This document shows, in pieces, positions 47,306-63,917 of a stretch of DNA of 64,000 bases. Numbering within the stretch: the stretch's first letter is position 1; each line of letters opens with the position of its first letter. This stretch comes from Candidatus Methanomethylophilaceae archaeon. GTDB taxonomy: Archaea; Thermoplasmatota; Thermoplasmata; Methanomassiliicoccales; Methanomethylophilaceae. The notes below the pieces were generated by a model, which saw only the letters and a program-made list of their open reading frames with translations, did no database searches and was not told the origin of the DNA. The stretch spans positions 62,001-126,000 of the forward strand of contig CALUOK010000004.1 of NCBI GenBank assembly GCA_944322255.1, written 5' to 3'. Made by a program: the position numbers and the translations under genes.

Positions 47306-47671
47306 ATGAAGGTCTACAGCACTCACTTCATTCTCAAAGGCAAATCCGACTACAAGGACCTGGCTCCAGTGTTCCCGGACATCCTCAAGATGTTCCTGGA
47401 GGAGATCGGACAGACGCCCGAGGAGGAGGAGATTCTCCAGATGCTGATAGAGCTCAACATGATCGACCTCGAGAGGAACCGCAAGCCCGAGGGCTACAAC
47501 CGCAAGGGCAAGGTCCGCCTCGTGTTCCCCATGGACAGGAAGGAGTTCTACATCAAGACCTACACCAAGAGCACCGACATGTCCCACATCGCCGACAACA
47601 TCAGCAACATGCTGACCGCAGCCGGCATCAGCTTCACGGTGAAGCAGAACGACAACATCGAGTTCGACTGA
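47306..47671 (+). CDS. Conserved-looking small protein of unknown function
   Basis: 121 residues, MKVYSTHFILKGKSDYKDLAPV start, an acidic helix (EEIGQTPEEEEILQMLIEL), then strands with EFYIKTYTKS and a final FTVKQNDNIEFD. No Cys, no membrane helix, no motif I can name. The TATA box TCTTAAATA near 47278 predicts a leaderless mRNA, so it is expressed as its own unit. Function unknown. Confidence 0.7.
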   Translation: MKVYSTHFILKGKSDYKDLAPVFPDILKMFLEEIGQTPEEEEILQMLIELNMIDLERNRKPEGYNRKGKVRLVFPMDRKEFYIKTYTKSTDMSHIADNISNMLTAAGISFTVKQNDNIEFD

Positions 47672-47792
47672 AGTTCAGCGGTTCAGTATACGATAGTATA
47701 TCTGTCGTGTGTTTCACATCCGCAATTCTTATCTACCGATAGTGCGTATCAGCAATGGCGGCTTCAGTGGTCTCCGGTTCCTGACTTACGGG

Positions 47793-47820
47793 AGATGTAA
47801 CTGGACATCTGGCCATCTGG
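47793..47820 (+). repeat. Small hairpin and direct repeat before the DUF4365 gene
   Basis: AGATGT (47793-47798)/ACATCT (47805-47810) with a 6-nt loop, followed by a CATCTGG-CATCTGG near-tandem repeat ending at 47820. A TATAC GATA GTATA dyad (47687-47700) lies further upstream. The 174-nt gap is AT-richer than average. Possible regulation of the two-gene island. Confidence 0.35.
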
Positions 47821-47845
47821 TGTAGCCGTAGGAGGTGCACATCGG

Positions 47846-48430
47846 ATGACAAATGCCATATGCGGATGTTATGATGAGAAGTACAGTCATGATGACTATC
47901 GCTATAACCGCATCAAGGAGCAGCTCAGCATAAGCTATCTCAACGCCATTGCTTCGTATCTCGGATCCGAGTTGCAGGTTCACGGCCCGTTGATCGATGA
48001 CGACGGGATAGATGTGACCATCCGGCCTCCGCAGAGTCGTTTTCTGGATTGCACCAACACCAAGCCATCGATAGATGTCCAGATGAAGTGTACATCCAGT
48101 CCGAGGTATGATTCATCCGGCGACAGCATGCTCTTCAACCTTGACAGGAGGATCTTCACCAAGATGCAGATCGAAAGTCTCTCTCCGACACTTCTGATGG
48201 TGTTGATCCTACCCGAAGAAGTCGATGAGTGGATCTCATGTAACGACTCGGGGTTGTTGATGCAACGTGAGATGCTCTGGTACAGTGCCAACGGTTGTGG
48301 CCGTACAGTGTCGGACAATCAGAAAACTGTTAACATCAGTATTCCCTGCAGCAACAAAGTGACGAAGGAATCGGTAGGGCAGATGCTGCACAAGGTGGCT
48401 CGTATGGAGGCGATTGTGAATGAGGTATGA
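47846..48430 (+). CDS. DUF4365-like putative PD-(D/E)xK nuclease
   Basis: 194 residues. EQLSISYLNAIASYLGSELQ, then DDDGIDVTIRP and SIDVQMKCTSSPR reproduce the E-...-D-G-I-D-...-(D/V)-Q-x-K core of DUF4365 proteins, a PD-(D/E)xK nuclease-like family; FNLDRRIFTKMQ and LMVLILPEEVDEWI are the usual next blocks. The catalytic Lys is in VQMKC. Codons are markedly AT-richer than in neighbouring genes, implying recent transfer. GGAGGTG at 47831-47837 precedes the ATG. It overlaps the next gene by 11 nt, so the pair forms one unit, possibly defensive (inference). Confidence 0.75.
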   Translation: MTNAICGCYDEKYSHDDYRYNRIKEQLSISYLNAIASYLGSELQVHGPLIDDDGIDVTIRPPQSRFLDCTNTKPSIDVQMKCTSSPRYDSSGDSMLFNLDRRIFTKMQIESLSPTLLMVLILPEEVDEWISCNDSGLLMQREMLWYSANGCGRTVSDNQKTVNISIPCSNKVTKESVGQMLHKVARMEAIVNEV

Positions 48431-49535
48431 CATTCCGCCGATGGACGTGCTGTCCAACATCAATCCTCAGAACATACGCATGTATCTCATCTCACGCGGG
48501 TGGGAGAGCAAGCGTCAGGAACAGAAGTTCGATGTGTTCATGAACCCGGTAACAGGGGAAAGCCTGGTTGTTCCCAACGACAGGTCTCTTCGTGATTATG
48601 CTTACAGGGTGGAAGACATAATCGATGCGCTGTCCAAGATGGACGGTGAATCCCCACAGTCCATTTTCATGGGCATGACATTGTCATCTTCCACGGATGT
48701 GATCTCATACCACTACGAACCAGACTCCAGAGAGGTCGGTCTGATTCCGATTATCGATCTGGAGTCGATTCTGAAGGCAGGTCGCAACATCAACCACTAC
48801 GCTTTCCGCGACATGTGCGATTTCAAGCCAAAGTACTCATCTTCGAAATGGGAGAGGAAACACGAGCTGGATGGAATCAGGGTCGGACCGACGTTGCCGG
48901 GCAGTTACGTTGTGCAGTTCGTATACCCATCTCTTGCGATCGATGGCGGTATTCAGACCACGATTGACGGGGGCATCTCCATAGAGGACGAGAGTCTGCG
49001 TCGTCTCTGCGACAAGATCGAATCCTCTCTCAAGGAGATCATCGAGACCGCAGAGCGTGGGAGAACAAGCCTCAATCCGGAGGCGGAGATCTCCTACAAC
49101 TTTGTCTCATCTCTCAGAGATCTGAGTTTCGACAATGCTGAGGTGGAAGTGCGCAGGACCAGGACAATCGGAGTCCCAGGAGGGTCCTCCCGGCCCTTGG
49201 CTCTGACCCATGGGGTGATGAGGAACATTGCGTCCATCGAGCGGAACATGAGGCCGGATGACATGAACAGCGAGGTCACGCTCATAGGAAGACTCGTTCA
49301 GGTCAATGATCTCCGTGAGGAGGTCGGGGACGATCCGGTCACGATGAAGATCAAGTACATGGATGACAGGAACGAACAGATCCGTACGGCCAAGTTCGTG
49401 GTTAGTGGGGAGGATGCCGATCTGGCCTACGATGCGGCCAAAGGCCGTCGCACCGTATCCATAACAGGCATACTGACAGGGCCTCCAAGGGCCAGATGCC
49501 TGGAGGAGATCTCGGATTTCAGGATCCTGAACTGA
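48420..49535 (+). CDS. Unknown partner protein of the DUF4365 gene
   Basis: 371 residues, start overlapping the nuclease-like gene. N-terminal part: MYLISRGWESKRQEQKFDVF, FMNPVTGESLVVPNDRSLRD, YAYRVEDIIDALSKM, a small alpha/beta unit. The last ~80 residues (EVTLIGRLVQVNDLREEVGD, VTMKIKYMDD, RRTVSITGILTGPPRARCLE) look like an OB-fold-like beta barrel, which could bind nucleic acid or nucleotide. No membrane helix. Base composition matches its partner and not the genome. I do not recognise the family. Confidence 0.7.
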   Translation: MRYDIPPMDVLSNINPQNIRMYLISRGWESKRQEQKFDVFMNPVTGESLVVPNDRSLRDYAYRVEDIIDALSKMDGESPQSIFMGMTLSSSTDVISYHYEPDSREVGLIPIIDLESILKAGRNINHYAFRDMCDFKPKYSSSKWERKHELDGIRVGPTLPGSYVVQFVYPSLAIDGGIQTTIDGGISIEDESLRRLCDKIESSLKEIIETAERGRTSLNPEAEISYNFVSSLRDLSFDNAEVEVRRTRTIGVPGGSSRPLALTHGVMRNIASIERNMRPDDMNSEVTLIGRLVQVNDLREEVGDDPVTMKIKYMDDRNEQIRTAKFVVSGEDADLAYDAAKGRRTVSITGILTGPPRARCLEEISDFRILN

Positions 49536-49583
49536 CGAAGTTTGTAAGTAAAAAGGGAGTAAGGGTCGGGAGAGCCCCGAGTT

Positions 49584-61819: not shown

Positions 61820-61967
61820 CTCAAACAGATGATGTGCCAGACATCATTCTCGGTCGGGGTGTCGGAGGTATTTAAGGCACGTTTAGTTCGAAGCTATACA
61901 TATGATTACCTTTATCATTTAGAACGCGATGCATGTTGCACAAAATGAGCCGGGGGGGGGGGGTCGA

Positions 61968-63917
61968 ATAGGGACGCTCCCTCACGGGGGCGCCCCCTTC
62001 TAAGAACCGTACGTGCGAGTTTCCCCGCATACGGCTCAAGCCACCATCCACCCTCCTATGAGGGCGGTGGCATCCGAAGCGATGTCAGCTTCTGAGGGTG
62101 GCTCCTTTCCTACGTTTCTCGAAGTAGTCGAGATCGAGGTACGGGTTCATGTCACAGCGCACAAGCCTGTGACGGCGTATCCTCATCTGTTTGGGGGAGA
62201 AGAGCTCGTAGTCGATGCGCTTCCCGTCCCTTTCGACAACACATGAGAACTCCCAGTTCCTCTTTCCCTTCCTGTGCCAGTACCTCCTCAGATACCAAAT
62301 CCTGTGTCTGCGCGAGTGCCTGCGTTGCGCCCAACGCTCCAGAACGTGGTATATGTAATCGTGGAGTGCCTTGAACGTACCGTAAGAGACCACATTGCGG
62401 TAGTAATTGCACCAGCCTCTGACCACTGAGTTCAGTTGCACGATGATGCTTGCTTGGGTCGCGGCTTTGCCGCGACCGAGGACAATCTCTCGGACCTTTT
62501 CCCTGATGTGGTCGAAGGCTTTCTTCGATGGCTTGATAAGCAACTTATCGTTATCGTACCTTCTGAAGTTGAACCCCAGGAAGTCGAATCCGTCGCTGAT
62601 ATGAGTGATGACGGTCTTCTCCTTCGACAGTTCCAGTCCGCGTTCCGCCAGGAACGGGACCAGAACAGCCATGGCTTCCTCTGCGTCATCCCTCGTCTTG
62701 GTAGTGACAACGAAATCGTCCGCGTACCTCACCACAGTGACCTTGGTACGTCCTTCAAAATGCTCCTGAAGGAGTCCGTGCATGCCGTTGAGGGTCATGT
62801 TGGCCAGAGTAGGCGAGATGGCACCGCCTTGCGGGGTGCCATCCTCGGTGGGGAACAGAGCCCCTTCCTGCACGAACCCAGCCTTCAGGAACTGCTTCAG
62901 CACACGTTTGTTCATCGGGATGTTCTCCATCAGCCACTCGTGGCTGATGTTGTCGAAGCATCCCCTGATGTCCCCTTCGAGGGCCCAGTCATCCCTGTGA
63001 CTGCCAGTGAACGCCTTGAAGAGGCGTTCGCAGGCGTCATGGGCGGACCTTCCCTTGCGGAATCCGTAGGAGAACGGGTCGGACTGGGCCTCGCATATCG
63101 GGTCGAGGGCCAGCAGGTGCAGGGTCTGCATCGCGCGGTCCTGCATCGTCGGTATGCCCAAGGGCCTCATCTTACCGTTCTTCTTCGGAATCTCCACTCT
63201 TCTGAGAGGTTTCGATTTGTAGGTCTTGGAGTCGAGCGACTTGACCGCCCTCATCTTCTGCGCGTCTGTCGTCCAGATCACGCCGTCGACGCCTGGGGTC
63301 ATGGCGCCCTTGTTCTCGCTCACTGTCTTCACGGCCAACGCCTTGGCCGAGAAACTCAATGTCAACAGGTGCGAGAACCTCATAGCATCATTCATCCTTC
63401 CTTCGGATACCGCCTTGGAGATCTTGGCCTGAAGTCTTCCTACCTGCCTCTCGACCTCGTGCCAGTCTATCGACTGCCACTCAGTCGCCAGTTCGGCGTC
63501 TGAACTCTCGCCCTCGGGCGCTTTTGATGTTCCGACTTCGGTTTCCTTCATGCTTTCCCTCCGATGGTGACCCGTGACACGTCTGCACCCTTTCGGGTCG
63601 GTGCACAGGCACCTATCCACCGCATTACACGATGGCGTTGGCTTCTTGTCACATCCTACACCCTCTGGCCCTTCCTCCATAGGGGAGTACCCTCGGGCCG
63701 GCACCGGCCCGAGGGAGACCATAGGGGTTATCACGTTCAGTCTGGCGGATAGTCGTGTGCGGTTTAGGCAACATCTCTGACCCGGGACGTCGTCGTCTGT
63801 TCGTCGCTCGGCTCCCCAGCTCCGCGACCTGCGTCCACCTAGCTCGGGCTTCGGACCCTCTCTTGCTTGGGGGATGACGGGCCTTCCAATGCTTCACATC
63901 TGTTTGCCATGCCGCAC
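61968..63917 (-). mobile_element. Group II intron
   Basis: The 5' boundary is proposed at 63917, where the minus strand reads GTGCG. Domain V is unmistakable at 62004-62037: 34 nt starting GAGCCGTATGCGG and ending CGTACGGTTC with a GAAA-like loop. Domain VI follows with a bulged A about 10 nt before the 3' end, which I place near 61968 (CCCTAT). The maturase lies in domain IV. Total about 1.95 kb, a usual length. The upstream exon side (63918-64000) holds two GC hairpins. A run of 12 G (61952-61963) lies directly beyond the 3' end. Confidence 0.85.
62085..63551 (-). CDS. ltrA: Group II intron reverse transcriptase/maturase
   Basis: 488 residues from ATG 63551, which follows GGAGGG with 6 nt spacing. 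RT blocks: MRPLGIPTMQDRAMQTLHLL, FRKGRSAHDA, GDIRGCFDNISHEWL, GTPQGGAISPTLANM and the catalytic YADD in VVRYADDFVVT. Then the maturase (X) domain (IKPSKKAFDHIREKVREIV, VRGWCNYYRNVVSYGTFKAL). The C-terminus is basic and lacks an HNH endonuclease Cys/His set, so target priming would rely on another DNA end. It splices and mobilises its own intron. No stop or frameshift disrupts it. Confidence 0.95.
   Translation of the reverse strand: MKETEVGTSKAPEGESSDAELATEWQSIDWHEVERQVGRLQAKISKAVSEGRMNDAMRFSHLLTLSFSAKALAVKTVSENKGAMTPGVDGVIWTTDAQKMRAVKSLDSKTYKSKPLRRVEIPKKNGKMRPLGIPTMQDRAMQTLHLLALDPICEAQSDPFSYGFRKGRSAHDACERLFKAFTGSHRDDWALEGDIRGCFDNISHEWLMENIPMNKRVLKQFLKAGFVQEGALFPTEDGTPQGGAISPTLANMTLNGMHGLLQEHFEGRTKVTVVRYADDFVVTTKTRDDAEEAMAVLVPFLAERGLELSKEKTVITHISDGFDFLGFNFRRYDNDKLLIKPSKKAFDHIREKVREIVLGRGKAATQASIIVQLNSVVRGWCNYYRNVVSYGTFKALHDYIYHVLERWAQRRHSRRHRIWYLRRYWHRKGKRNWEFSCVVERDGKRIDYELFSPKQMRIRRHRLVRCDMNPYLDLDYFEKRRKGATLRS

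What the first reader, a model, noticed from the sequence alone, without database searches (positions are those of the whole stretch)
47687..49535. AT-rich two-gene island: DUF4365-like nuclease and unknown OB-fold-like partner
Two overlapping genes with base composition unlike their neighbours, inserted between a housekeeping-type gene and the arginine genes. The first has the PD-(D/E)xK-like core DGID...VQMKC of DUF4365 proteins, a family repeatedly met in mobile and defence-related contexts. The second is a 371-residue protein that I cannot place, with a probable nucleic-acid or nucleotide binding beta barrel at its end. A nuclease effector with a dedicated recognition or regulation partner is a plausible undescribed immune or mobile-element module.
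Basis: partly seen in the sequence, partly recalled or inferred. Interest (0 to 1): 0.7.

Follow-up and report, generated by a model that had tools for sequence, protein, structure and literature searches.

The report
Archaeal copy of candidate defence pair
Two overlapping genes in a gut-type methanogen encode a nuclease and a partner ending in a nucleic-acid-binding-type barrel; the same pair travels on plasmids and phages across bacteria and is already listed, untested, as a candidate antiviral system, so it is a good target for experiments rather than a new discovery.

Summary
Window 47846-48430 (A, 194 aa) is a DUF4365 protein and 48420-49535 (B, 371 aa) overlaps it by 11 nt. Both are GC-poor for this window (A 50%, B 54%, window 62%). 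They sit in a gap that is nearly empty (about 7-160 nt) in 12 congeneric genomes. The pair is not undescribed: A and B match the two halves of PADLOC's candidate system PDC-M02 (1.7e-34 and 1.6e-33). I found no paper that tests it.

New here: A folds like the DREN nuclease domain of SPARDA, and its catalytic Asp/Gln/Lys triad is invariant in 28 of 28 loci. A and B abut in all 28 intact loci, on plasmids, prophages and chromosomes from archaea to actinobacteria, and their divergences track each other (r = 0.81). Cyanobacterial plasmids carry a 'mini-B' without the middle domain.

Most likely an Argonaute-free two-component defence: B senses foreign nucleic acid, probably single-stranded DNA, and licenses a DREN-type nuclease. 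Class probable; sensing step inferred; antiviral activity untested. Main rival: toxin-antitoxin module.

The parts
47672..49581 (.). Segment absent from the thiDN / 121-aa gene / argH locus of 12 congeneric genomes (island)
   Evidence: Empty-site comparison: homology ends at the stop of the 121-aa gene and resumes at about 49582; GC 50-54% against 62%
47830..47837 (+). AGGAGGTG, ribosome-binding-site-like sequence before A
   Evidence: Sequence
47846..48430 (+). Gene A: DUF4365 / PDC-M02A, predicted PD-(D/E)XK nuclease of the DREN type, 194 aa
   Evidence: PF14280 1.1e-12, above the curated cut-off; PDC-M02A 1.7e-34; AlphaFold model pLDDT 80 whose first 11 PDB matches are SPARDA complexes
48011..48088 (+). 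Active-site codons of A: D56 (48011-48013), Q79 (48080-48082), K81 (48086-48088)
   Evidence: Invariant in 28/28 loci; same D...QxK pattern as NbaSPARDA D41/Q60/K62 (PMC12205087) and TmuRE Q62/K64 (PMC10810196)
48420..49535 (+). Gene B: PDC-M02B, 371 aa, partner protein; overlaps A by 11 nt
   Evidence: PDC-M02B 1.6e-33 over the full length; no Pfam, NCBIfam or significant PHROG match; AlphaFold model pLDDT 81.5, pTM 0.65
48420..48695 (+). B N-terminal domain (residues 1-92; conserved W28, P52, D59), kept in mini-B
   Evidence: Alignments, HMM split match in mini-B, conservation
48696..49271 (+). B middle domain (residues 93-284; T158-x-x-G161-S162 invariant in full-length forms), absent from mini-B
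   Evidence: no fold match in the PDB top list
49272..49526 (+). B C-terminal OB fold (residues 285-369; strand-strand-strand-helix-strand-strand)
   Evidence: Secondary structure; Foldseek PDB best matches are OB folds: OBody, SSB, RPA, PriB, LysRS anticodon domain, E 0.01-0.2, probability mostly above 0.9

Best explanation
The locus is a horizontally acquired two-gene module of the candidate family PDC-M02. A is a DREN-type PD-(D/E)XK nuclease effector. B is its obligatory partner and probable sensor: an N-terminal domain that I infer docks A (it is the part kept in every form of B), a middle domain with a T-x-x-G-S motif of unknown role, and a C-terminal OB fold likely to bind single-stranded nucleic acid. 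I propose that A is inactive or weakly active alone, as the isolated DREN domain of SPARDA is. B bound to invader nucleic acid (for instance replication intermediates of a virus or incoming plasmid) would bring A copies together, and the assembled nuclease would degrade nucleic acid, either the invader's or collaterally. Shown by computation: pair, nuclease fold and intact active site, OB topology, joint inheritance, mobility, empty site. Inferred: docking, ssDNA sensing, activation by assembly, antiviral purpose. My estimates: nuclease effector plus dedicated partner 0.9; antiviral or anti-mobile-element role 0.65; OB-based ssDNA or nucleic-acid sensing 0.4; activation by oligomerisation 0.35.
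For: Both proteins match PDC-M02 models over full length, and all 19 A and 20 B relatives tested do so too. A: PF14280; D56, Q79, K81 invariant in 28/28; top structural matches SPARDA, then Hjc, I-Ssp6803I and EcoRV. In SPARDA, D41A and Q60A abolish activity, DREN alone is monomeric with no detectable nuclease activity, and tetramerisation activates it (PMC12205087). B: OB fold. Pairing: 14/14 A-positive plasmid loci have B directly downstream; the phage loci L039 and L040, plasmids L041 and L042 and seven viral-contig loci do too; spacing -14 to +2 nt in 28/28, 16 of them 4-nt overlaps, and mirror-tree r = 0.81 with 0/2000 permutations as high. Mobility: plasmids, M. abscessus prophage genes 1-2, Leptospira phage LE1, recombinases adjacent. 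Defence genes near some bacterial copies: HEC-06-like DUF262 and AbiD (L041), pPIWI-RE (L035), SoFic (L028), type I-E Cas (L031). Patchy: 4/199 relatives, 3/390 of the phylum; in G014 and G030 the pair lies elsewhere and this site is empty.
Against: No experiment is known. The three better-assembled archaeal loci (window, G014, G030) have ordinary neighbours and no defence island. The defence-gene association in bacteria is anecdotal here, not scored against a background. Foldseek E-values for the OB domain are modest (0.01-0.2), and OB folds also bind proteins and tRNA. No evidence shows that A and B touch. PDC-M02 is itself a guilt-by-association prediction.
Confidence: 0.6

Rival explanations
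1. Toxin-antitoxin (addiction) module: A is a toxic nuclease and B its neutralising partner; the pair is kept because losing it kills plasmid- or prophage-cured cells.
For: Two small overlapping genes on plasmids and at a prophage end; in four decayed loci A is broken or missing: L045 frameshifted, L044 mostly deleted and L024 absent, all three with an intact B ORF, and L043 in two frames.
Against: B is large (three domains, OB fold) with no recognisable autoregulatory DNA-binding domain. Azospirillum has an intact A with a B reduced to the N-domain plus unrelated sequence. NCBIfam has no toxin or antitoxin match. Isolated DREN of SPARDA is inactive. The decayed loci with intact B were mostly found by searching with B, which biases the count.
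Confidence: 0.2
2. Self-sparing restriction: B recognises a DNA sequence or modification state and A cleaves directly, a two-subunit restriction enzyme without a methylase.
For: PD-(D/E)XK fold with secondary similarity to EcoRV and homing endonucleases; a dedicated partner could be the specificity subunit; PD-(D/E)XK proteins are frequent in systems giving direct immunity (PMC9519451).
Against: No methylase next to the archaeal pair; no DNA-recognition fold seen in B other than the OB domain.
Confidence: 0.12
3. Host DNA repair or recombination pair (Hjc-like nuclease with an SSB/RPA-like helper).
For: Structural resemblance of A to archaeal Hjc (rank 12 and below) and of B's C-terminus to SSB/RPA.
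Against: Present in only 3 of 31 congeneric genomes, at three different chromosomal sites, with empty sites in relatives; carried by plasmids and phages; foreign composition.
Confidence: 0.04
4. Selfish homing-type element: A is a homing endonuclease that spreads the pair.
For: DREN resembles the tetrameric homing endonuclease I-Ssp6803I.
Against: The pair sits between genes, not in an intron, intein or conserved target; congeners hold it at different sites; no junction signature.
Confidence: 0.03

Closest known systems
PDC-M02 (PADLOC-DB 2.0 candidate system; M02A + M02B)
   Same: Both proteins match the full-length models of their half; same gene order and overlap; all sampled relatives match the same models
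   Different: Nothing that excludes membership. This is an archaeal branch (about 20% identity to bacterial copies). Mini-B of cyanobacterial plasmids lacks the middle domain yet matches the same models in two pieces
SPARDA (short pAgo + DREN-APAZ)
   Same: A shares the DREN fold and the D...QxK active site
   Different: No APAZ domain on A, no Argonaute next to it, no Piwi match in the genome; partner B is not Argonaute-like
SSB / RPA / PriB OB-fold proteins
   Same: C-terminal domain of B has the same topology
   Different: B is three times larger, has two further domains and matches no such family by sequence
DUF6575 proteins (one occurs in a validated E. coli phage-defence system, PMC9519451)
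   Same: A viral DUF6575 protein is the third structural match of B (E 7.7e-7, TM 0.32)
   Different: No sequence match to PF20215 in any of 20 B proteins; none found in the phylum; weak global fit

Membership tests
PDC-M02 | First gene matches an M02A model over full length | tested here: met
   1.7e-34, residues 21-188 to model 4-163/165
PDC-M02 | Second gene matches an M02B model over full length | tested here: met
   1.6e-33, residues 1-370 to model 1-380/383
PDC-M02 | The two genes are adjacent on one strand | tested here: met
   11-nt overlap in the window; 28/28 intact loci within -14 to +2 nt
PDC-M02 | Antiviral activity | not testable with these tools
   No paper naming PDC-M02 in the library; a 2026 archaeal survey calls most PDCs unvalidated
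DUF4365 / DREN nuclease | Pfam PF14280 above the curated cut-off | tested here: met
   48.7 bits against 24.3
DUF4365 / DREN nuclease | PD-(D/E)XK fold with catalytic D...QxK | tested here: met
   Model and Foldseek; D56/Q79/K81 invariant in 28/28
DUF4365 / DREN nuclease | Nuclease activity | not testable with these tools
   Needs purified protein
SPARDA | APAZ domain fused to the nuclease | tested here: not met
   A is 194 aa and ends with the nuclease domain
SPARDA | Short Argonaute in the operon | tested here: not met
   No PF02171 match in the whole genome (control rang in M. jannaschii); B has no Piwi-like fold match
Toxin-antitoxin module | One protein toxic alone and neutralised by the other | not testable with these tools
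   Only indirect: decayed loci tend to lose A and keep B
OB-fold nucleic-acid-binding protein | Five-stranded barrel with helix between strands 3 and 4 | tested here: met
   B residues 285-369
OB-fold nucleic-acid-binding protein | Binds nucleic acid | not testable with these tools
   Fold alone does not show it
DUF6575 | Match to PF20215 | tested here: not met
   No match in 20 B proteins

The most novel reading that the evidence does not exclude
PDC-M02 is an Argonaute-free branch of DREN immunity found in archaea and bacteria: an OB-fold sensor (B) detects invader single-stranded nucleic acid without a guide and switches on a SPARDA-type nuclease. Mini-B on cyanobacterial plasmids would define the minimal two-domain sensor, and the middle domain would be an optional specificity or regulation module.
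Probability: 0.3. Interest if true: 0.65.

Novelty: new member of a known kind. Interest (0 to 1): 0.4.

Why it matters
The pair is one of many catalogued but apparently untested defence candidates. Linking its nuclease to the SPARDA effector by fold and active site, and its partner to an OB fold, turns it into a concrete and cheap hypothesis: a guide-free way to trigger a collateral-type nuclease. It is present in archaea, whose defences beyond CRISPR and restriction are poorly known, and the natural mini-B offers a minimal version to study.

Tried and rejected
Single-protein and narrow-alignment scans of genome contigs found only a Candidatus Methanoplasma genome, and single-protein scans of viral contigs found nothing or near-identical copies; tblastn on plasmids and phages and one group-specific alignment scan gave the breadth. 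Alignments over all relatives were too diverse for pattern scans. Sequence profiles of A and B gave no credible PDB match (best EcoRV at E 0.94, fitting the fold but not significant). Argonaute link rejected. DUF6575 link left as a lead only: one structural match, no sequence support. The weak DruH match of mini-B (6.7e-6) was not pursued. Integration signature: no target-site duplication, tRNA or flanking inverted repeat found. The idea that the insertion site is a defence hotspot was rejected: in other congeners that spot holds EamA-like transporters and other ordinary genes. Promoter and terminator scans were at chance level.

Full report
What is there. Two overlapping ORFs lie on the + strand between a 121-aa gene (47306-47671) and argH (- strand, from 49584): A at 47846-48430 (194 aa) and B at 48420-49535 (371 aa). 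GC is 49.7% for A and 53.6% for B against 62.2% for the window. A reaches the DUF4365 cut-off (PF14280, 1.1e-12); B matches nothing in Pfam or NCBIfam.

It is catalogued. Against PADLOC-DB 2.0, A matches PDC-M02A (1.7e-34) and B matches PDC-M02B (1.6e-33), both along their length. All 19 A relatives and 20 B relatives tested match the same two model sets. No paper in the library names PDC-M02; a 2026 survey of archaeal immunity states that most PDCs lack validation (PMC12988326).

It is an insertion. Searching the 121-aa gene in the genus gave 30 loci. In 12 of them thiDN, the 121-aa gene and argH follow each other with about 7-160 nt between the last two and no pair. These include G014 and G030, which carry their own pair elsewhere. 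The pair was found in 4 of 199 relatives and 3 of 390 genomes sampled from the phylum. One Candidatus Methanoplasma genome has three copies, 29-40% identical to the window in B. No junction signature was found, and the spot is not a defence hotspot.

The pair is a unit. A found 26 plasmid records. All 14 loci fetched have B directly downstream. Reciprocal and phage searches added Entomospira, Phaeobacter, M. abscessus prophage prophi102-2 (genes 1-2) and Leptospira phage LE1 (gp38-gp37). Viral contigs added seven paired loci, one of them LE1 itself. In 28 loci with both genes intact the distance is -14 to +2 nt, 16 of them 4-nt overlaps (some start codons were chosen by homology). Pairwise divergences of A and B correlate at r = 0.81 (0 of 2000 permutations as high; 0.79 within bacterial and viral loci alone). 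This shows joint inheritance, not physical contact.

A is a DREN-type nuclease. The AlphaFold model (11 sequences, pLDDT 80) has the helix-strand-strand-strand-helix-strand core. Its first 11 PDB matches are SPARDA complexes (best E 2.6e-6), followed by archaeal Hjc, I-Ssp6803I and EcoRV. D56, Q79 and K81 are invariant in 28/28. In NbaSPARDA, D41 and Q60 hold the metal, D41A and Q60A abolish and K62A impairs activity, the isolated DREN domain is monomeric with undetectable activity, and filament-driven tetramerisation activates it (PMC12205087). In TmuRE the corresponding residues are Q62 and K64 (PMC10810196). A lacks APAZ, and the genome has no Piwi match, so this is not SPARDA.

B has three parts. 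The model (pLDDT 81.5, pTM 0.65) ends in strand-strand-strand-helix-strand-strand (285-369), and Foldseek returns OB folds (designed OBodies, SSB, RPA, PriB, LysRS) with E 0.01-0.2. The rest has no PDB counterpart in the top list. Nostoc and Tolypothrix plasmids carry a 175-180 aa mini-B that aligns to the N-terminal ~90 residues joined directly to the OB domain, so the middle domain is dispensable. In full-length B, T158, G161 and S162 of the middle domain are invariant. A 101-aa Nodularia phage protein matches the N-domain alone.

Context. Bacterial copies sit beside tyrosine or serine recombinases in several plasmids. Some lie near recognised defence genes: HEC-06-like DUF262 plus AbiD (L041), pPIWI-RE (L035), SoFic (L028), type I-E Cas (L031). 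I did not score this against a background. Archaeal copies have ordinary neighbours.

How it most likely works. I commit to a guide-free sensor-effector pair: B recognises invader nucleic acid through its OB domain, holds A through the N-terminal part common to all forms, and brings A copies together so that the nuclease becomes active. The nuclease and the partnership are well supported; the sensing, docking and activation steps are inferred from folds and from SPARDA. The leading rival is a toxin-antitoxin pair. Decayed loci in which A is broken or missing and B is intact (L024, L044, L045) fit that reading, although they were found mostly by searching with B, and Azospirillum shows the reverse (intact A, B cut to its N-domain).

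Verdict. A real, well-conserved, mobile nuclease-plus-partner module that is already listed as a candidate defence system. It is a new archaeal member of a known kind, with a structural reading that makes its mechanism testable.

Noticed in passing
L025:6198-6740, L027:5953-6480, L035:6483-7025, L036:6486-7022, L044 and L045:6001-6543: Mini-M02B (175-180 aa) on Nostoc and Tolypothrix plasmids: N-domain fused directly to the OB domain, middle domain absent; in four of these loci the next gene is a tyrosine recombinase on the opposite strand (in L027 a site-specific integrase follows on the same strand).
   Followed up: partly
L044, L045, L024, L043: Decayed pairs in which the nuclease gene is deleted, frameshifted or missing; the partner ORF stays intact in L024, L044 and L045.
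   Followed up: partly
UniProt A0A482MK90 (Nodularia phage vB_NspS-kac65v162), found by fold search: A 101-aa phage protein resembles B's N-terminal domain alone (TM 0.70 by target length, 32% identity); it could be a pair remnant or an interfering fragment.
   Followed up: no
window 61963-63734 (-): Group II intron 3' part (Rfam RF00029, 61963-62039) with a reverse transcriptase/maturase-like ORF at 62085-63734, about 13 kb from the island.
   Followed up: no
window 57734 onwards (+): Start of a long ORF that reads like a tyrosine recombinase in its first ~300 residues, then runs on out of frame against an ABC transporter gene; the terminal part looks spurious.
   Followed up: no
L039:398-2160: In M. 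abscessus prophage prophi102-2 the pair is genes 1-2 at the end of the prophage record, just ahead of a WXG polymorphic-toxin cassette.
   Followed up: no
window 47306-47671 (+): A 121-aa protein found in 30 of 31 congeneric genomes, next to thiDN, with no significant Pfam match.
   Followed up: no
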